Origin: Clostridia bacterium | GTDB lineage: Bacteria; Bacillota; Clostridia; Oscillospirales; CAG-272 | Direction of reading: 5' to 3' | Assembly: GCA_017461945.1 (NCBI GenBank) | Contig: JAFTSB010000051.1 | Coordinates: 1 to 42,406 of the forward strand | DNA length: 42,406 nt | Shown here: positions 35,345-42,406 of the stretch, one piece after another | Layout of the letters: each line of letters opens with the position of its first letter | Numbering within the stretch: the first letter of the stretch is position 1 | Notes under the pieces: generated by a model | What the model saw: only the letters and a program-made list of their open reading frames with translations | Database searches by the model: none | Told to the model about the DNA's origin: nothing | Program-made: the position numbers and the translations under genes

Positions 35345-35349
35345 GCCAT

Positions 35350-35389
35350 AAAACAAAAATCCCGCACACGGTGCGGGATTTTTGTTTTA
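35350..35389. terminator. Terminator of the DUF1538/P-II operon (hairpin copy 1)
   Basis: Perfect 18-base stem with CCCGCAC/GTGCGGG core, A-run before and T-run after; serves also the convergent small RHH gene. The core 35359-35383 recurs at 35964-35988. Confidence 0.92.
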
Positions 35390-35542
35390 TTAGGATAGTT
35401 TTTCATCTTTGGCAAGGTGATTGCGTAACACCAGGTTGATATATTGCGATACAGATCGCTCATCTTCTTCTGCACGCATTTTGATTTCAGCAAGCACATC
35501 TTCATCTAATGTAATACTGATGCTTCGCTTTAAAGGCTTCAT
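35390..35542 (-). CDS. Small ribbon-helix-helix protein
   Basis: A 50-residue protein, MKPLKRSISITLDEDVLAEI followed by KMRAEEDERSVSQYINLVLR and NHLAKDEKLS. The basic first strand, the xSITLDEDVLxxIK segment and the second helix SVSQYINLVL fit Arc/CopG-type DNA-binding proteins, often antitoxins or plasmid-type repressors. AAAGGAG (about 35551-35556) precedes the start. It is divergent from a gene for an unknown 101-residue protein, and two palindromes lie between; autoregulation is the likely model. Confidence 0.85.
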   Translation of the reverse strand: MKPLKRSISITLDEDVLAEIKMRAEEDERSVSQYINLVLRNHLAKDEKLS

Positions 35543-35653: not shown

Positions 35654-35959
35654 ATGAGTCTTTACGATCAAATGATATTAAATATTGCCAGAAAATCTAT
35701 GGAGGAATGTGATTACCATGCCTTAGGCATTCTTATGAACGAATTTGCTTATGGCGAATGCTATAATATGCTAAAGCACATACATAACATTATTCGGGAT
35801 GAATCGCTGACCGATGCAGATTGCTATGCCAGGATTGAAGCGATTATTAAAGTGTTTGAAAAACAGGATTTTAGTGTGGGCAATCGACACCGCCTTATGA
35901 AGCATATGGATCTGGAATGGACAAATGCCGAGGCAAAGGATTTGGGGTGGGAGGAATAA
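35654..35959 (+). CDS. Unknown 101-residue protein paired with RHH gene
   Basis: I do not recognise it. It is all-helical by appearance, without signal or membrane segment: MSLYDQMILNIARKSMEECD, then HALGILMNEFAYGECYNMLK, and ends WTNAEAKDLGWEE. GGGGG at 35643-35647 suits ATG 35654; ATG 35651 is the alternative. The layout (divergent from a small RHH gene, shared operators) recalls toxin-antitoxin or phage-type switches, but nothing in the sequence shows a toxin motif. A terminator hairpin follows the stop at once. Confidence 0.7.
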   Translation: MSLYDQMILNIARKSMEECDYHALGILMNEFAYGECYNMLKHIHNIIRDESLTDADCYARIEAIIKVFEKQDFSVGNRHRLMKHMDLEWTNAEAKDLGWEE

Positions 35960-35988
35960 GAAAATCCTGCACACGGTGCGGGATTTTT
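35960..35988 (+). terminator. Terminator (hairpin copy 2)
   Basis: ATCCTGCAC/GTGCGGGAT hairpin with one G-T pair and a T-run, directly after the stop codon. 24 of 25 bases match the terminator core at 35359-35383. Confidence 0.85.
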
Positions 35989-36002
35989 CACCTTTTTTGA
36001 AA

Positions 36003-36183
36003 AGGAATGCGTGTTATGGTAACGGTCATTTACTCCAAGGGGCAAAAGCAAACGCCTTCGTCGTCGGCTCACAAGTGGCCGTCGTTCGTGCGGCGTTTGC
36101 CGCACCCATGCGTGTGCCCTTTCAGCATCGCAAAAGGCCGAGCTGCCTATTGGGCACAAGCCGGTCGTTTTAGGTACGGGTCA
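36003..36183 (+). ncRNA. Possible structured small RNA, class unknown
   Basis: A 180-base non-coding stretch with nested pairing: GCAAACGCC (36048-36056) with GGCGTTTGC (36092-36100), and GTGCCC (36114-36119) with GGGCAC (36152-36157), followed by a strong terminator. No convincing promoter is seen (TTGAAA at 35997 lacks a -10), so this is tentative. Confidence 0.3.
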
Positions 36184-37743
36184 CCAACGGAAAAAAGAGG
36201 CTGCACAACTGTGCAGCCTCTTTTTTTCCGTTGGTGAAGCCGTCATTTTGATATCCGAACTATTTTCAATAGAGTCGAGCTCTTCGCCCGTGGGCACGGC
36301 AAGAGGCTCGTCCTTAAATGTAAAGGTAATAATAAGTTTGTCATCGTAAAGCAGGATGGATTTGACCAGACCGTCGATCAGGCGCTCGCGGTTCTTTGTA
36401 ATGCTGATGTCCAGGTTGCTGAAACGCTCCAATATGAACAGAATATGCTCCTTTGTGAGTGTGGGGCGCTTGACTTTCTCCTCCAAAATGCTATGCTTGA
36501 TGCGCTCCTCCTCGGCTTCCAGTTCCTCCAAACGGGACTTGGTGGAGCGTGTGATGACGCCCATTTCAATGGCCTTCATCACATTGTCGAGGGATTTTTG
36601 CACTTCCTTCAACTGCGCTTCCAGTGCAGGAATCAAGGTGTTATCTTCCTGTATTAACTCCATAATGCTGTCTGCGATTTTATTGAGCGTTTCGGTATCC
36701 TTCAGAATGCGCATCACGCGCTCGATCACCAGATCCTCGATCCACTCCTTGCGCACCGCTTTCTTGTCGCATTGATGCTTTTTCGCCGACGCGCATTTAT
36801 AATAGCGGTAGATCGTGCCGTTCTTTTTCTGTGCACTGTCACCCACCATCATCGTTTTGCATTTCCCGCAAAACAGTTTGGTAGTAAGGATATAACGTTC
36901 GGGGGCTTTACCCTTGGCAGAGGCACGCTTGTTGGATTCCATCCGCTTGGATACTCGCTCAAATACGTCGGGTGAAATCATAGCGGGGACGCCGTTCGGC
37001 ACGACCACGTCACTGAAATGGTACTCGCCAATGTAAATACGGTTTTGCAGCATACGGTTCATGCTGCTTTTGGTGAACGGCTTGCCCTTGGAATAGCGCA
37101 CGCCACGCCCGTTGAAATCGTTGATAATATTCGTAATGGATTCGCCGGCGGCATAGCGGTTGAAAATATCTATCACAATGGGCGCAACGGCAGGGTCGAT
37201 CTGATAATTTTTCTCTGCATCGATTACGTATCCGTATGGCACTACGCTACCGTTATATTTGCACTTCAAAGCGTTTTCGGTCATACCGCGGGTGATCTTT
37301 TCCGCAAGGTCGGCAGAATAGTATTCCGCAAGACCCTCTAAAAGAGATTCCAAAAGTATTCCTTCCGCTCCTTCGGAGATCGCTTCGGTAGCGGATACCA
37401 CACGAACGCCATTCTTTTTTAGCATAGCTTTATAGATGGCAGAGTCGTGACGGTTACGCGAAAAACGGTCAAGCTTCCAAACGATGATCAGATCAAAGCC
37501 GCGCTTGGCGCTGTCCTTGATCATACGCTGGAATTCGGGGCGCTCATCGCTTTTGGCGGAGAACGCGCGATCGATATAATGCCCCACGATCCGCAAGCCG
37601 TTCTTTTCGGCAAAGGCAGTGTTTTCGCGGATCTGCCCCTCTATGGATTCCTCACGCTGATTGTCGGAGGAATAGCGCGCATAGATGACGGCGCGCAGAC
37701 CGTCTGAAATGCCATCGGAGTGCTTTTTCGCATCACGTTCCAT
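36181..37743 (-). CDS. Large serine recombinase
   Basis: A 520-residue site-specific recombinase. N-terminal resolvase domain with VIYARYSSDNQREESIEGQI (catalytic Ser near 25) and WKLDRFSRN, then a Recombinase domain (YGSVVPYGYV-like segment, GESITNIINDFNGRGV). A zinc ribbon follows with LFCGKCKTMM and a second Cys pair (CASAKKHQC), then a long coiled coil (about 370-445). Such enzymes move integrative elements. The start overlaps the Xre gene end by 11 bases. The final 17 or so residues (SPTEKKRLHSCAASFFRW) are encoded by the inverted repeat at 36184-36236, so the C-terminus may be altered by element joining. Confidence 0.93.
   Translation of the reverse strand: MERDAKKHSDGISDGLRAVIYARYSSDNQREESIEGQIRENTAFAEKNGLRIVGHYIDRAFSAKSDERPEFQRMIKDSAKRGFDLIIVWKLDRFSRNRHDSAIYKAMLKKNGVRVVSATEAISEGAEGILLESLLEGLAEYYSADLAEKITRGMTENALKCKYNGSVVPYGYVIDAEKNYQIDPAVAPIVIDIFNRYAAGESITNIINDFNGRGVRYSKGKPFTKSSMNRMLQNRIYIGEYHFSDVVVPNGVPAMISPDVFERVSKRMESNKRASAKGKAPERYILTTKLFCGKCKTMMVGDSAQKKNGTIYRYYKCASAKKHQCDKKAVRKEWIEDLVIERVMRILKDTETLNKIADSIMELIQEDNTLIPALEAQLKEVQKSLDNVMKAIEMGVITRSTKSRLEELEAEEERIKHSILEEKVKRPTLTKEHILFILERFSNLDISITKNRERLIDGLVKSILLYDDKLIITFTFKDEPLAVPTGEELDSIENSSDIKMTASPTEKKRLHSCAASFFRW
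36184..36236. terminator. Long inverted repeat, bidirectional terminator
   Basis: CACCAACGG, an A-run and GAGGCTGCAC mirror GTGCAGCCTC, a T-run and CCGTTGGTG; arms of about 25 bases differing by one base in the A/T run. The last codons of the recombinase gene run through it. Confidence 0.8.
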
Positions 37744-38104
37744 CGTTTTCCTCCATCATTTGCAGCATAAGTGCCTTGATTTTGGCACTCGCCTCGGACT
37801 TGGGATCAAAGCACATCGCCACGAAATCTGCCATTTCACGGCGGCGCTCTTCTGTGATTTTGAGTGCCTTCGGCTCGTATTTATAGAGCTTGCCTTGTGG
37901 CTTGTCCGTGCGTCCAAAAATATAATCCATGGACACGTCAAAGTAATCGGCATACCAAAGTAACGCCTCTGCCGAGGGCGTGTAGGTGCCGTTTTCATAA
38001 CGATAAATACTGGTCTGCGGACAGCCGATCATATCCGCTACCTTCTGTTGCGAGAGCTTCATGCCCTCTCGCAACGCTTTCAATCTTTCACCAAGTATCC
38101 GCAT
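37733..38104 (-). CDS. Xre-family helix-turn-helix repressor
   Basis: A 123-residue protein. Residues 5-65 form a Cro/C1-type domain: LKALREGMKLSQQKVADMIG, then CPQTSIYRYENGTYTPSAEA and YFDVSMDYIFGRTD. The C-terminal part is charged helix. GGAGG (38111-38115) lies seven bases before the start at 38104. It precedes and overlaps the serine recombinase gene, so it probably controls that gene and itself through the palindrome overlapping their promoter. Confidence 0.9.
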   Translation of the reverse strand: MRILGERLKALREGMKLSQQKVADMIGCPQTSIYRYENGTYTPSAEALLWYADYFDVSMDYIFGRTDKPQGKLYKYEPKALKITEERRREMADFVAMCFDPKSEASAKIKALMLQMMEENDGT

Positions 38105-38122
38105 AGCATACCTCCGTCGATA

Positions 38123-38156
38123 ATGCTATTATAGCATAACGTCGACCGTGTGTCAA
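38123..38156 (-). promoter_or_regulatory. Promoter and palindromic operator of Xre-recombinase operon
   Basis: On the reverse strand TTGACA (38156-38151), 17-base spacer, TATAAT (38133-38128). The palindrome ATGCTA-TTA-TAGCAT (38123-38137) covers the -10 box. TAGCAT occurs again at 38104-38109. Confidence 0.75.
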
Positions 38157-38269
38157 GTCACATATGGATCTTGCTTTTTACCTCGCCATTGCCTCCGCTA
38201 ATAATTTGTAACAAAGCGAACAATTCCTTTATGGGAAAAATATAAATCGTATTTATTTATCGAATTGTA

Positions 38270-38298
38270 TTGATAAATTTCCTATAATGTGGTATAAT
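38270..38298 (+). promoter_or_regulatory. Promoter of the Fic-TIR/SEFIR operon
   Basis: TTGATA (38270-38275), 17-base spacer, TATAAT (38293-38298); a second TATAAT is at 38283. Ribosome site AAGGAGG at 38313-38319. Confidence 0.75.
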
Positions 38299-38325
38299 AA
38301 AGACAGTAAATCAAGGAGGCATCGT

Positions 38326-39216
38326 ATGAAATACTTATCTGTTGCCGAATTTGCCGCCAAATGGGGGCTGACCGACCGCAGTGTGCGCAAATACTGCGCC
38401 GACGGCAAAATTGCCGGGGCGTTTCTCACGGGCAAGACGTGGAATATTCCCGAGGATGCGCAAAAGCCCTCACGTAAACCGCGAGAAAGCAAAAAGCCGA
38501 AGACATTACTTGCCATTCTGCGCGATCAGAAGGATTCCCGTTTGTCAGGCGGTATTTATCACCGCGTGCAGATCGACCTGACCTATAACTCCAACCACAT
38601 CGAGGGCAGCCGCCTCACCCACGATCAGACACGCTACATTTTTGAAACCAACACCATTGGCTTCACCGATGGCAGCGTGAACGTGGACGATATCGTGGAG
38701 ACCACCAATCATTTCCGTTGTATCGACTCCATCATAGACAACGCAACACACGCCCTCTCGGAAAAATATATCAAGGAGCTGCATCTGCTCCTCAAAAGCG
38801 GCACCAGCGACAGCCGCAAGAGCTGGTTTGCGGTGGGTGATTACAAAAAGCTCCCCAACGAGGTCGGCAACCGTGAAACTGTTGCGCCAGAGGCTGTCCA
38901 CAACGAGATCAGCGAACTGATCGCCGAGTATAACGCCCTTGAGAATGTCACCTTTGAAGATATTATCGCCTTCCACGTGCGCTTCGAGCGCATTCACCCG
39001 TTCCAGGACGGCAACGGCAGAATCGGCCGCCTCATTATGTTCAAGGAGTGCCTCAAGTATAACATCGTTCCCTTCATTATTGACGAGAGCCACAAAATGT
39101 TCTACTACCGCGGCCTCTCCGAATGGGACTACGAGCGCGGCTACCTCCTCGACACTTGCCTCTCCGCGCAGGATAAGTTTAAGAGGGTGTTGGAGTATTT
39201 TAGGGTTGAGATGTAA
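38326..39216 (+). CDS. Fic-domain AMP-transferase with N-terminal HTH, class II
   Basis: A 296-residue protein. Residues 1-45 are a MerR/excisionase-like helix-turn-helix (LSVAEFAAKWGLTDRSVRKY). Residues 80-296 are a Fic fold with HPFQDGNGRIGR (224-235), catalytic His224, so transfer of AMP (or another nucleotide) to a target hydroxyl is expected. S89-NHI-E93-G94 matches the (S/T)xxxE(G/N) inhibitory motif placed before the Fic core, the class II arrangement in which the enzyme restrains itself. No separate antitoxin is therefore needed. It is followed after 15 bases by the TIR/SEFIR gene with no terminator between. Confidence 0.92.
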   Translation: MKYLSVAEFAAKWGLTDRSVRKYCADGKIAGAFLTGKTWNIPEDAQKPSRKPRESKKPKTLLAILRDQKDSRLSGGIYHRVQIDLTYNSNHIEGSRLTHDQTRYIFETNTIGFTDGSVNVDDIVETTNHFRCIDSIIDNATHALSEKYIKELHLLLKSGTSDSRKSWFAVGDYKKLPNEVGNRETVAPEAVHNEISELIAEYNALENVTFEDIIAFHVRFERIHPFQDGNGRIGRLIMFKECLKYNIVPFIIDESHKMFYYRGLSEWDYERGYLLDTCLSAQDKFKRVLEYFRVEM

Positions 39217-39231
39217 AAAAGGAGAATAACA

Positions 39232-40206
39232 ATGCGAGTATTTTTGTCATATTCTTGGGATAGCGATGCACATAGAGAATGGGTTGTAAAAATTGCCAAC
39301 ACTTTAAGAAATCCTTACGGCTTTGATGCACGATGTGATGGCACGCGAACTATCGATAATTTGAATCGTATGATGGTAGAAGAGATTCGTGATAGCGATA
39401 AAATTATCGTTGTTGCCACTCGCCAGTATGCAGAGAAAGCCGATGGTATTAAAGGTGGTGTAGGCACAGAGACACAATTGCTCTTTAACTATTTTGTCAA
39501 AAACCCAAGCAAAATCGTGGTAATTAAAAAAGAGGATACAGAACTTCCCTTTTATTTGAATGGATTCCAGTACATTGATTTTACACAGGGCGACTTTGTA
39601 GAGAATATTGAGCAACTTGTTTTGAAACTTCAAGATAGTCCTCAATATGAGCCAGCACCTATAGCTCAAAATCCCAAAAAAGTCACTAGTAAACGTGTTG
39701 ATGTGGATGATGACTTGATCCCGAATCTAAAACGTTATACACGCGAGGACAAGCAACTGTTTTTAGAGCAACAGTTAGAGCAAGCACATGAACGAATTAT
39801 GGATTTGCTTCAAAGAACCAAGGATCAATATCCCGATTTTTCATTTTCGCACAAAGAAATTGACGAGAGCGTTTCTGCCGGAAGATACTGGCTTCTTGAC
39901 GGTCAAATGATAGAAAAGAAAACACAGTATAAGGGACATATGTATCAAATCAGTTTCCAGGGTGAGTTAGACGGATATCGCCTTTGGGTTCCCAATGGTG
40001 AGGATACTATGGGTATATACGGGTCTTCTGATTTGGGAAGATATAGCCGACCTGGATATAATTCCTATCACCTGTGGATTGGTCCAGATCAAAGCGAAAA
40101 GGTATTGGCATTGAATGCAACAATGGGGGTGTATGGCGAAAAGATTTCCAACGGCAAGGAATTGGGTGAATTTGTATTTAAACAAATGACATGGAGGTTA
40201 AGATGA
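39232..40206 (+). CDS. TIR/SEFIR-like protein with unknown C-terminal domain
   Basis: A 324-residue protein without signal or membrane segment. Residues 1-135 are TIR/SEFIR-like: MRVFLSYSWDSDAHREWVVK, IRDSDKIIVVATRQYAEKAD, and GGVGTETQLL with Glu80 as possible catalytic Glu, then KIVVIKK. Such domains in bacteria can be NAD-degrading effectors of phage defence. Residues 155-200 are a charged coil. Residues 205-324 are a Tyr/Gly-rich beta domain (FQGELDGYRLWVPNGEDTMG, SSDLGRYSRPGYNSYHLWIG) that I do not recognise; it may sense a trigger. Base composition is clearly more AT-rich than the neighbouring fic gene, suggesting separate acquisition. RBS is AGGAGA; the end overlaps the next gene (ATGA). 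Confidence 0.8.
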   Translation: MRVFLSYSWDSDAHREWVVKIANTLRNPYGFDARCDGTRTIDNLNRMMVEEIRDSDKIIVVATRQYAEKADGIKGGVGTETQLLFNYFVKNPSKIVVIKKEDTELPFYLNGFQYIDFTQGDFVENIEQLVLKLQDSPQYEPAPIAQNPKKVTSKRVDVDDDLIPNLKRYTREDKQLFLEQQLEQAHERIMDLLQRTKDQYPDFSFSHKEIDESVSAGRYWLLDGQMIEKKTQYKGHMYQISFQGELDGYRLWVPNGEDTMGIYGSSDLGRYSRPGYNSYHLWIGPDQSEKVLALNATMGVYGEKISNGKELGEFVFKQMTWRLR

Positions 40207-40673
40207 AAACATTTCTGACAATTAATGATCTTCAAGAAAATCGTTTTCACGTGGAAGGTATCGCGAATGTACTTCGTCCTTTTGGGATAGATTTGGCAAA
40301 GCAAGATCATTTAACTTATGTAGCAGTCGACGAGGATAATGATAAAGCGTTTTATACAGTGTTGATTGATGACAAGCGAGATTTTTGTGTTCTCCAATTC
40401 GAAAAAGCTTTGAGAGAGTATTGGGATGTATCTAACCTAGGATTTGATATCAGTATTTATCCTAAATCAACCATAGAAATGATAGCATATCGAGAAAACA
40501 AAATTTTTGATGACTTTCAAACAAAGTACAGTGTTTTAATATCAATAAAGACAAAAAGCCAAAACCATATTGAAATCGCTGAAACAGTTTTAAAGGAAAC
40601 TGTGAGTACTTTGCTAAAGAAATTTATAAAAGAACTGAGAAATGATAGTATAGAAGAGATAAACCAAATTTGA
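40203..40673 (+). CDS. Unknown small protein coupled to the TIR/SEFIR gene
   Basis: I do not recognise this 156-residue protein. It starts MKTFLTINDLQENRFHVEGI, looks alpha/beta in its first 100 residues (LTYVAVDEDNDKAFYTVLID) and ends in charged helices (about 105-156). No signal or membrane segment. The ATGA overlap with the TIR/SEFIR gene and TGGAGG upstream imply strict co-translation, so it is probably a partner or immunity protein. Like its partner it is AT-rich. No function can be named. Confidence 0.75.
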   Translation: MKTFLTINDLQENRFHVEGIANVLRPFGIDLAKQDHLTYVAVDEDNDKAFYTVLIDDKRDFCVLQFEKALREYWDVSNLGFDISIYPKSTIEMIAYRENKIFDDFQTKYSVLISIKTKSQNHIEIAETVLKETVSTLLKKFIKELRNDSIEEINQI

Positions 40674-40714
40674 ATGTGCGCAGAAAGCACAATGCATATT
40701 AACAATTTCTTTTC

Positions 40715-40743
40715 TGGACTTTCCCTGCAACTTGTGGTATAGT
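40715..40743 (+). promoter_or_regulatory. Possible promoter of the small accessory gene pair
   Basis: TGGACT (40715-40720), 17-base spacer, TATAGT (40738-40743), with AGGAGG at 40761-40766 before ATG 40774. Confidence 0.5.
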
Positions 40744-40773
40744 GTGTGCTACCAACCATAGGAGGTAGCAAAA

Positions 40774-41019
40774 ATGGTAAAAATCACAGTAAAAGAACTA
40801 TACTACGGAGAGCGCTACGGCGTGATGGGCGAGGTGTTCAAGGCGATGCTGTTGGCATCCGACAACACGGTGGACGAGCAAACACGCTTGGAGCTAGAAA
40901 TCGTCCGTCAGACGCTGATCGCAGCAGAAAAAATGAAACAAAACGGCGACTGCATTGCCGAGAGAGATCTCGGTAGCGCGGCCGCCGTTTTTGCATCGGG
41001 AGGTGAGGGGAATGGCTAA
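40774..41019 (+). CDS. Small unknown protein of the integrase region
   Basis: An 81-residue protein, MVKITVKELYYGERYGVMGE followed by VFKAMLLASDNTVDEQTRLE and helical IVRQTLIAAEKMKQNGD. It has no domain I can name. The AGGAGG site at 40761-40766 and tight overlap with the next gene (stop 41017-41019, next ATG 41012) support it as real. Short helical proteins like this are common beside integrases in Firmicutes elements. Confidence 0.65.
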   Translation: MVKITVKELYYGERYGVMGEVFKAMLLASDNTVDEQTRLELEIVRQTLIAAEKMKQNGDCIAERDLGSAAAVFASGGEGNG

Positions 41020-41284
41020 CATCTTGGAGGAGCTTTGGCACGGAAATGTTGTGCCTTACGGTAGCGTGCGGCACACGCCCGAGATGACGCAGTTGATGGG
41101 CTACATCGCTCGGCACCACGAAAAGCTAACGGCAAATCTAACAGGTGAATTAAAGGAAACCTTTGAGAAATTAGACGACTGCTGGAACGAATACGCCGAG
41201 CTATGCGATAAGGAAGTCTTTATACACGCCTTCCGCCTCGGTATGCAAATCGCCATAGCGGCAATGACGGAGAGGGACGAGTGA
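41012..41284 (+). CDS. DUF6809-like small protein
   Basis: A 90-residue helical protein, MANILEELWHGNVVPYGSVR, then HEKLTANLTGELKETFEKLD and FIHAFRLGMQIAIAAMTERD. The opening ILEELWHGN and the C-terminal F-x-x-G-x-x-x-G-like helix fit what I remember of DUF6809, a family found in conjugative elements and prophages of Clostridia; role unknown. The start has GAGGGG and overlaps the previous gene by eight bases. Confidence 0.65.
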   Translation: MANILEELWHGNVVPYGSVRHTPEMTQLMGYIARHHEKLTANLTGELKETFEKLDDCWNEYAELCDKEVFIHAFRLGMQIAIAAMTERDE

Positions 41285-41347
41285 TCGTCCCTCTTGCCTT
41301 TTATCAACGCCCTTTTTGTGGCATAATAGTCAAAAAAGGAGGTTCAC

Positions 41348-42280
41348 ATGAAAACAAGAGAACTACTGACCGAATGGTTGGAGGATTACGAAAAAGAGCG
41401 TGTAAAAGCGCGAACGTACAGCAGGTACGAGGGGCTGATCACCCTGCACATTTTGCCCGAGCTGGGTGATATTGAGGTAGGGTTGCTTGGCAAGCGAGAG
41501 ATACAGGATTTTCTCACCCGCAAACGGCGGGGAGGCAATATCCGAAACGGGGAACAGCTGTCTGCTACTAGTACTAACCTCATGCTAACGGTGCTCAATC
41601 TTGCCTTTGAATATGGATGCGATATGGAACTAATTGATCGTAATCCGTGCGAGCGATTGCGGCGAGTGCCGGAGGATGCCAAAAAGGTGGAAGCGTTTAC
41701 TAAGGAGGAGCAGCGCAAGCTGGAGCGCGTGATCGCCGCAGAAGAAGATCCAAGGCATGTAGGTATCCTATTATGCCTCTATACGGGGCTCAGAATCGGT
41801 GAATTGCTGGGGCTTACGTGGGAGGATGTGGATCTTGTCCGCGGCATCATTCACATTGACAAAACGGTATACCGCGAACGGGATGAAAGTGGGCAATGGA
41901 AGATGTGCGTGGACACCCCGAAAACGCGCTCCTCTACACGGGTGATCCCACTGCCCACGTATATCACCAAAATGCTGAAAAGTGCCAAAACGGGTGCAAA
42001 AAGTGCCTATGTGGTGGAAAATAAAAAGGGCGAGCGCATGGCAATACGCTCGTACCAATATATCTTTGAAAAGCTGACCGAGCGTGCCGGCATCCGCCGC
42101 CTGAATTTTCACGCTCTGAGGCACACCTTCGCCACCCGCGCACTGGAATGCGGTATGGACATCAAGACACTTTCCGAGATCATGGGACATCAAAATGCAT
42201 CCATCACTCTCAATCGCTACGCCCACAGTATGATGGAGACAAAAATAAAAATGATGCAGAAATTGCCGAAAATTTTTTAG
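41348..42280 (+). CDS. Tyrosine-type site-specific integrase
   Basis: A 310-residue integrase. N-terminal SAM-like core-binding domain (ELLTEWLEDYEKERVKARTY) and C-terminal catalytic domain with the full set Arg149 (TGLRIGELLGL), Lys192, His255-x-x-Arg258 (HALRHTFATR), His281 (MGHQNASI) and nucleophile Tyr291 (NRYAHS). Length is ordinary for element integrases that lack an extra arm-binding domain, so it may be a compact type. AAGGAGG precedes ATG 41348 and CATAAT lies about 20 bases further upstream. It would cut and join DNA at att sites; these were not found in the window, probably because one lies beyond base 42406. Confidence 0.93.
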   Translation: MKTRELLTEWLEDYEKERVKARTYSRYEGLITLHILPELGDIEVGLLGKREIQDFLTRKRRGGNIRNGEQLSATSTNLMLTVLNLAFEYGCDMELIDRNPCERLRRVPEDAKKVEAFTKEEQRKLERVIAAEEDPRHVGILLCLYTGLRIGELLGLTWEDVDLVRGIIHIDKTVYRERDESGQWKMCVDTPKTRSSTRVIPLPTYITKMLKSAKTGAKSAYVVENKKGERMAIRSYQYIFEKLTERAGIRRLNFHALRHTFATRALECGMDIKTLSEIMGHQNASITLNRYAHSMMETKIKMMQKLPKIF

Positions 42281-42406
42281 GCAAAAACTGCATTGAAGGT
42301 TATCATCGGAACATACTAATAGGTTAATTACATATAATTATACCATTATCTCGCGCGTTTTTCAACAGTTAAGGTAAAATATCATTACGAAACGAGGCAT
42401 ATATCC

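What the first reader, a model, noticed from the sequence alone, without database searches (positions are those of the whole stretch)
38326..40673. Three-gene operon Fic - TIR/SEFIR - unknown: candidate undescribed defence or toxin system
Seen: one promoter, gaps of 15 bases and a 4-base overlap, no internal terminator. The Fic protein has an intact catalytic motif and a built-in inhibitory motif; the next protein has a TIR/SEFIR-like domain with a possible catalytic Glu80 plus an unfamiliar C-terminal domain; the third is unknown. Known: Fic proteins modify targets with AMP and bacterial TIR domains can consume NAD in phage defence. Inference: the pair couples two kinds of nucleotide-based attack or a Fic-controlled TIR effector. 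It sits between two recombinases.
Basis: partly seen in the sequence, partly recalled or inferred. Interest (0 to 1): 0.8.

Follow-up and report, generated by a model that had tools for sequence, protein, structure and literature searches.

The report
Swappable SEFIR defence cargo beside Fic
A gut bacterium's mobile DNA carries a likely anti-phage gene pair (a TIR-like SEFIR enzyme plus a very variable partner) at a spot where relatives carry other defence-type genes, and the neighbouring Fic gene is probably not its true partner.

Summary
The three-gene run is real: Fic 38326-39216, SEFIR 39232-40206, unknown X 40203-40673, with a 15-base gap, a 4-base overlap and a strong promoter in front. 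Glu80 is invariant in 9 of 9 aligned SEFIR domains. The cassette recurs in one other genome of the genus, inside a 5.1-kb block at 90% DNA identity. SEFIR-X is low-GC (0.40/0.32), Fic is not (0.53). In one relative the same Fic and downstream genes flank a different low-GC pair. Other copies of the downstream block lie beside AbiJ, a CD-NTase or AbiH. Best reading: SEFIR-X is an exchangeable, probably NAD+-depleting abortive-infection cargo next to Fic. X has no convincing relative and is 56% identical between two elements whose other proteins are 91-97% identical; it may be the sensor or specificity part. New variant of a known kind (bSEFIR). NADase activity, AMPylation and phage defence are untested.

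The parts
36181..37743 (-). serine recombinase of the mobile block
   Evidence: Resolvase 8.8e-30, Recombinase 2.9e-17; 95.9% identical in L008
37733..38104 (-). Xre-type HTH regulator, overlapping the recombinase
   Evidence: HTH_3 3.2e-14; 95.1% in L008; promoter-like site 38156-38128 on - strand, 12 of 12
38270..38298 (+). promoter-like site in front of Fic
   Evidence: 11 of 12, extended -10; also in L008 and L161
38326..39216 (+). HTH-Fic protein, 296 aa
   Evidence: PF02661 7.3e-17, PDC-S04 5.7e-112, 4x2e best in PDB
39232..40206 (+). SEFIR/TIR protein, 324 aa; SEFIR domain about residues 2-134, Glu80 in GGVGTE, C-terminal half without a known family
40203..40673 (+). X, 156 aa, no convincing relative, ATGA overlap with SEFIR
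   Evidence: 55.8% identical in L008
40714..40743 (+). start of the constant right-hand block (CTGGACTTT) with the promoter-like site of g81
   Evidence: six-locus alignment; TGGACT-17-TATAGT, 9 of 12
40774..41019 (+). g81, 81-aa protein of unknown function
   Evidence: 91% identical in L008, L160, L161, L162
41012..41284 (+). DUF6809 protein
   Evidence: PF20648 9.8e-20; matches in 114 of 246 family genomes at 1e-8
41348..42280 (+). tyrosine integrase, outside the block shared with L008 but present behind DUF6809 in L161
   Evidence: Phage_integrase 6.7e-32

Best explanation
SEFIR and X form a horizontally acquired defence pair carried as exchangeable cargo in mobile DNA of a Clostridia genus, between a Fic gene and a constant g81-DUF6809 block. 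Fic is a neighbour read in the same direction, not an obligate partner. Proposed action: phage infection is sensed by X and/or the C-terminal half of the SEFIR protein; the SEFIR domains then assemble and, through Glu80, break down NAD+, so that the infected cell stops phage growth (abortive infection). X, translated right behind SEFIR and far more divergent than the genes around it, is most likely the sensing or specificity subunit acting on the SEFIR C-terminal half. Shown: layout, domain assignment, Glu80 conservation, purifying selection, presence in two genomes at different sites, different cargo in relatives, compositional break, divergence of X. Inferred: NADase activity, phage defence, role of X, independence of Fic at protein level.
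For: bSEFIR profile 1.1e-43 and bacterial SEFIR structures 5y8e/5y8f; Glu80 in 9 of 9. GC 0.396/0.316 for SEFIR/X against 0.527 Fic, 0.496 recombinase, 0.535 g81 and 0.525 for window 1-35000. L161: Fic 93% identical, then an M78/HTH and a DUF4411/PIN gene (GC 0.36), then the same g81, DUF6809 and integrase. L160: AbiJ (9e-81) and a PDC-S37/Hhe-type helicase before the same block; L162: CD-NTase (6e-101) divergent beside it; L164: AbiH (3.8e-19) before it. SEFIR in 1 of 46 Fic loci, Fic in 0 of 9. Chromosomal left flank only 68% alike between the two genomes that share the 90% block. X dS 1.2-1.5 from codon 40 on against 0.42 for the SEFIR C-terminal half. SEFIR listed as NAD+-depleting phage defence (PMC12322248, passages).
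Against: SEFIR-X is known from one element in two genomes, and in both it follows Fic closely in the same direction, so co-function cannot be excluded. No activity was measured. The window SEFIR lacks two residues and the Trp that 7 of 8 aligned relatives have after D36. The bSEFIR profile covers only residues 2-186. The defence-type neighbours were seen only in this genus; across 40 DUF6809 loci of the family most matched PADLOC models had a single member among 79 upstream proteins. DUF6809 also has a high dS (0.96) between the two copies while staying 96.7% identical, so high dS is not unique to X.
Confidence: 0.6

Rival explanations
1. Fic, SEFIR and X are one functional system: Fic AMPylates or otherwise controls the SEFIR effector or a trigger.
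For: Same strand, 15-base gap, shared promoter, no terminator between them; order kept in both copies; Fic is a PADLOC candidate defence family.
Against: SEFIR in 1 of 46 Fic loci, Fic in 0 of 9 others; compositional break; other cargo behind the same Fic in L161, the block without Fic in L160, Fic with no same-direction gene within 360 bases behind it in L163; Fic elsewhere just before phage tail genes.
Confidence: 0.15
2. SEFIR and X are a toxin-antitoxin-like pair: X holds the SEFIR NADase off and the pair serves to keep the mobile element.
For: Small overlapping partner gene, mobile block; the pair at the same place in L161 (M78/HTH and PIN) looks toxin-antitoxin-like; X co-varying strongly with its element would suit a cognate inhibitor.
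Against: X lies behind, not before, the SEFIR gene; SEFIR genes elsewhere occur without X; X has no antitoxin-like domain.
Confidence: 0.2
3. X is an unrelated gene that happens to lie behind a one-gene SEFIR defence.
For: The other SEFIR genes fetched here lie in varied contexts, including a type I RM operon (L132), and have no X.
Against: ATGA overlap, shared low GC, both present in both copies and X found nowhere else.
Confidence: 0.12

Closest known systems
SEFIR / bSEFIR phage defence (PADLOC PDLC03957; SEFIR in Table 1 of PMC12322248; original description recalled as Millman et al. 2022, not seen)
   Same: SEFIR domain with the GGVGxE glutamate
   Different: C-terminal half not covered by the profile and without known family; an overlapping partner gene X not seen in the other SEFIR loci fetched
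CdFic-type Fic proteins / PADLOC candidate PDC-S04
   Same: Fic motif, SxxxEG-type motif, PDC-S04 5.7e-112, 4x2e 7.6e-28
   Different: Extra N-terminal HTH; PDC-S04 is only a candidate, one native-host test found no defence (PMC12409345, passage)
Cargo sites of mobile elements with variable defence genes (defence islands or hotspots; general knowledge)
   Same: Constant flanking genes and variable low-GC defence-type cargo
   Different: The g81-DUF6809 marker: one paper search for DUF6809 gave 0 papers; seen here only within one genus

Membership tests
bSEFIR defence proteins | SEFIR domain | tested here: met
   PF08357 5.4e-11, PDLC03957 1.1e-43, 5y8f 1.5e-15
bSEFIR defence proteins | conserved Glu of the GGVGxE motif | tested here: met
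   invariant in 9 of 9; kept in 5y8e/5y8f. That it is the catalytic residue is recalled by analogy with TIR NADases, not tested
bSEFIR defence proteins | match over the whole bSEFIR profile | tested here: not met
   profile positions 40-227 of 412 only, protein residues 2-186 of 324
bSEFIR defence proteins | NAD+ depletion and phage protection | not testable with these tools
Fic AMP transferases with N-terminal inhibitory motif | catalytic HPFx[D/E]GNGR motif | tested here: met
   HPFQDGNGRIGR read directly; PF02661 7.3e-17
Fic AMP transferases with N-terminal inhibitory motif | [S/T]xxxE[G/N] motif | tested here: met
   SNHIEG aligned with SNKIEG of 4x2e; whether it inhibits is open (CdFic paper title)
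   1 of 46 Fic loci, only the copy of this element; 0 of 9 SEFIR-search loci
Type II toxin-antitoxin | toxic protein neutralised by its partner | not testable with these tools
   X has no antitoxin family match
Thoeris, CBASS or pAgo systems with TIR effector | their sensor gene (ThsA, CD-NTase, pAgo) beside the TIR gene | tested here: not met
   the two genes beside SEFIR are Fic and X, neither of which matches such a family

The most novel reading that the evidence does not exclude
The HTH-Fic protein is a constant controller, and the genes placed behind it (SEFIR-X here, M78/HTH plus PIN in L161) are interchangeable effectors that it modifies or licenses; X would adapt a TIR-type NADase to this shared controller and to changing phages.
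Probability: 0.07. Interest if true: 0.75.

Novelty: new variant of a known kind. Interest (0 to 1): 0.42.

Why it matters
If SEFIR-X defends, it is a two-gene form of SEFIR immunity whose partner has no known relative and differs strongly between two close elements, a useful system for asking how a TIR-type NADase is switched on. The site next to g81-DUF6809 is a place to look for further defence genes in this genus. It also shows that a tight operon-like layout in mobile DNA can be a cargo neighbourhood rather than a joint system.

Tried and rejected
Fic-TIR joint system: tested in Fic loci and SEFIR loci, not supported. X by homology: Pfam, PADLOC, NCBIfam, PHROGs, PDB, plasmids, viral contigs and 246 family genomes gave nothing convincing; the best outside hits (PHROG 0.0036 over 37 residues; G555 3.7e-4 over 49 residues of an 832-aa frame; DUF4857 0.012, below cut-off; PDB 0.45; plasmids 0.9) were taken as chance. 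SEFIR C-terminal half: two weak hits besides the own genome in 391 class genomes (0.0027 and 0.0077), one weak hit in the order (G244, residues 160-272, 4.7e-4), no PDB hit at E 10, none in viral contigs. DUF6809 as a general defence-site marker: 79 upstream proteins (the two nearest of at least 150 aa) from 40 family loci gave matches to 43 PADLOC models at 1e-8, of which 25 were listed; no listed model had more than 3 members and several are overlapping methyltransferase models, so nothing is claimed beyond the genus. Element survey by recombinase similarity gave recombinase-HTH pairs but no second Fic-SEFIR. Rfam: no match in 35900-42406 at gathering thresholds. Whole Fic-X stretch in plasmids by DNA: one short Fic match. 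Paper searches: SEFIR with 'anywhere' was swamped by the word ceasefire; bSEFIR with abortive infection 0 papers; Fic domain with phage defense, AMPylation and operon 0; Fic with TIR domain and anti-phage one paper, listing only; PDC-S04 five papers, one of them looked into; Fic/C. difficile and TIR/NADase listings, one paper of the former looked into. Passages of PMC12926258 and PMC13142454 gave nothing needed.

Full report
Check of the observation. A strong promoter-like site lies at 38270-38298 and no terminator-like site lies between the Fic stop and the X stop; weaker promoter-like matches inside the run mean that a single promoter is likely but not proven. A serine recombinase and an Xre regulator lie to the left on the other strand, a tyrosine integrase to the right.

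The proteins. Fic matches PF02661 (7.3e-17) with a weak N-terminal HTH_17, PADLOC's candidate family PDC-S04 (5.7e-112) and best in PDB the C. difficile Fic structures 4x2e/4x2c (protein identified as C. difficile Fic from recall). HPFQDGNGRIGR and SNHIEGS are intact. That the second motif inhibits is not certain: the CdFic paper, seen only as a title in the reference list of PMC6408439, reports inhibitory motif-independent AMPylation. The second protein matches TIR_2 and SEFIR, PADLOC bSEFIR (1.1e-43, residues 2-186 only) and the solved bacterial SEFIR domains 5y8e/5y8f. A caution: the window protein lacks two residues and the tryptophan that 7 of 8 aligned relatives have after D36. X has no convincing relative in anything searched.

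A second copy. A scan of 84,980 species genomes with peptide patterns from the SEFIR protein, which reaches close relatives only, found one relative: L008, a Clostridia MAG from sheep colon. One homologous block, window 36231-41334, is shared at 90% DNA identity and the flanks are not: recombinase, HTH, Fic, SEFIR, X, g81, DUF6809. The same contig appears as G982 in the window's own genus (contig length 54195 in both), so it is one record, not two. Window DNA left of the block (a P-II-type region) matches G982 at only 68%, which points to transfer between species. Pairwise dN/dS is 0.02-0.32 for the seven genes.

Who belongs with whom. Of 197 order genomes, 120 have some match to Fic, many to the HTH part only; 16 besides the own one match over nearly the whole protein (from residue 16 or earlier to 294 or later) at 57-71% identity, and 23 viral contigs hold relatives at 51-69%. 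A SEFIR profile run over 46 Fic loci (23 viral, 20, and L008, L161, L163; some are near-duplicates such as L044-L047 and some flanks are short; the short loci L010-L038 were not used) found SEFIR in one, L008. Fic was found in 0 of 9 loci brought in by SEFIR searches (L131-L139), eight of which carry a SEFIR domain. Matches to the SEFIR protein are rare: 5 of 394 order genomes at E 0.001, own one included, one of the others matching only residues 160-272 and none over the whole length; 1 of 246 family genomes, the own one. In plasmids 142 records match, none over 80% of the query; in phages 5. Composition splits the run: Fic 0.527 GC, recombinase 0.496, g81 0.535, against SEFIR 0.396 and X 0.316; window 1-35000 is 0.525.

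The cargo site. Among 21 genus genomes the constant right-hand block begins at CTGGACTTT, window 40714. In L161 (G983) a Fic 93% identical with the same promoter-like site is followed by an M78/HTH gene and a DUF4411/PIN gene (GC 0.36), then the same g81, DUF6809 and integrase. In L160 (G977) recombinase and HTH are followed by a PDC-S37/Hhe-type helicase (GC 0.48), AbiJ (GC 0.40) and the same block, without Fic. In L162 (G983) a CD-NTase stands divergently beside g81. In L164 (G236) an AbiH fragment at a contig end precedes a broken g81-DUF6809 copy. So each of the six records with a close copy of the block that I examined (window, L008, L160, L161, L162, L164) has a defence-type or toxin-antitoxin-type gene next to it, two of them SEFIR-X; the toxin-antitoxin label for L161 is mine. 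Weaker or shorter matches to the block in G985, G495 and G977:C83 were not examined for this. L163 (G980) has a Fic 80% identical with no same-direction gene within 360 bases behind it. Beyond the genus the pattern does not generalise.

Fic elsewhere is a passenger too: of nine viral contigs whose genes behind Fic I read, five (L039, L042, L049, L051, L052) have a tape-measure gene next or next but one, and L041 a major tail protein gene.

X. Between window and L008 X is 55.8% identical while the other six proteins are 91-97%. From codon 40 on its dS is 1.2-1.5, against 0.42 for the SEFIR C-terminal half, 0.46 for Fic and 0.05 for the SEFIR domain. Changes within SEFIR are 2 of 134 residues in the domain and 19 of 190 behind it (Fisher p 0.002), but dS differs in the same direction, so recombination explains this at least in part. 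The element is a mosaic: the SEFIR domain was recently made alike and X is an old allele, probably exchanged with an unsampled source. DUF6809 also shows a high dS (0.96), at 96.7% protein identity. A part shaped by phage pressure or partner recognition fits; allele exchange without such selection is not excluded.

What it most likely does. SEFIR is listed as an NAD+-depleting, abortive defence with narrow phage range (PMC12322248, passages) and named among NAD+-depleting systems (PMC11559045, passage). I propose that SEFIR-X is such a system with X as sensor or specificity partner. PDC-S04, the candidate family that Fic matches, gave no evidence of defence in one native-host test (PMC12409345, passage). 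The activity of every protein here is untested.

Verdict. Observation confirmed; interpretation partly right (defence-type SEFIR) and partly not supported (Fic coupling). New variant of a known kind, moderate interest.

Noticed in passing
L039, L042, L049, L051, L052 (viral contigs): Relatives of this HTH-Fic gene sit just before, or one gene before, a phage tape-measure gene, so Fic looks like a prophage passenger gene.
   Followed up: partly
L042 5930-6610; L051 4156-4602: Extra small genes without PHROG match between Fic and the tape-measure gene, one overlapping Fic by 4 bases.
   Followed up: no
window 40699-40744: A 46-base stretch with the g81 promoter recurs alone (83-85%) in G495:C3 and G984:C109, and 27 bases of it in G982:C45.
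   Followed up: partly
window 38231-38302: The stretch in front of Fic recurs at 77-81% at the end of another contig of the own genome (G000:C39) and in G980:C33.
   Followed up: no
window 35348-35391: A palindromic, terminator-like repeat found at several places in the own genome (C31, C36, C64) and in other genomes of the genus.
   Followed up: no
L008 10159-14817 and L160 5553-10208: The same PDC-S37/Hhe-type helicase lies right behind the block in L008 but between HTH and AbiJ in L160, as if it too were moving cargo.
   Followed up: partly
L132 1001-9000: A SEFIR gene lies inside a type I restriction-modification operon, between the HsdS and HsdR genes, with an Mrr gene upstream.
   Followed up: no
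L133 3382-6067: A SEFIR gene is followed by a protein kinase gene on the same strand and lies near an NgoPII-type restriction endonuclease gene.
   Followed up: no
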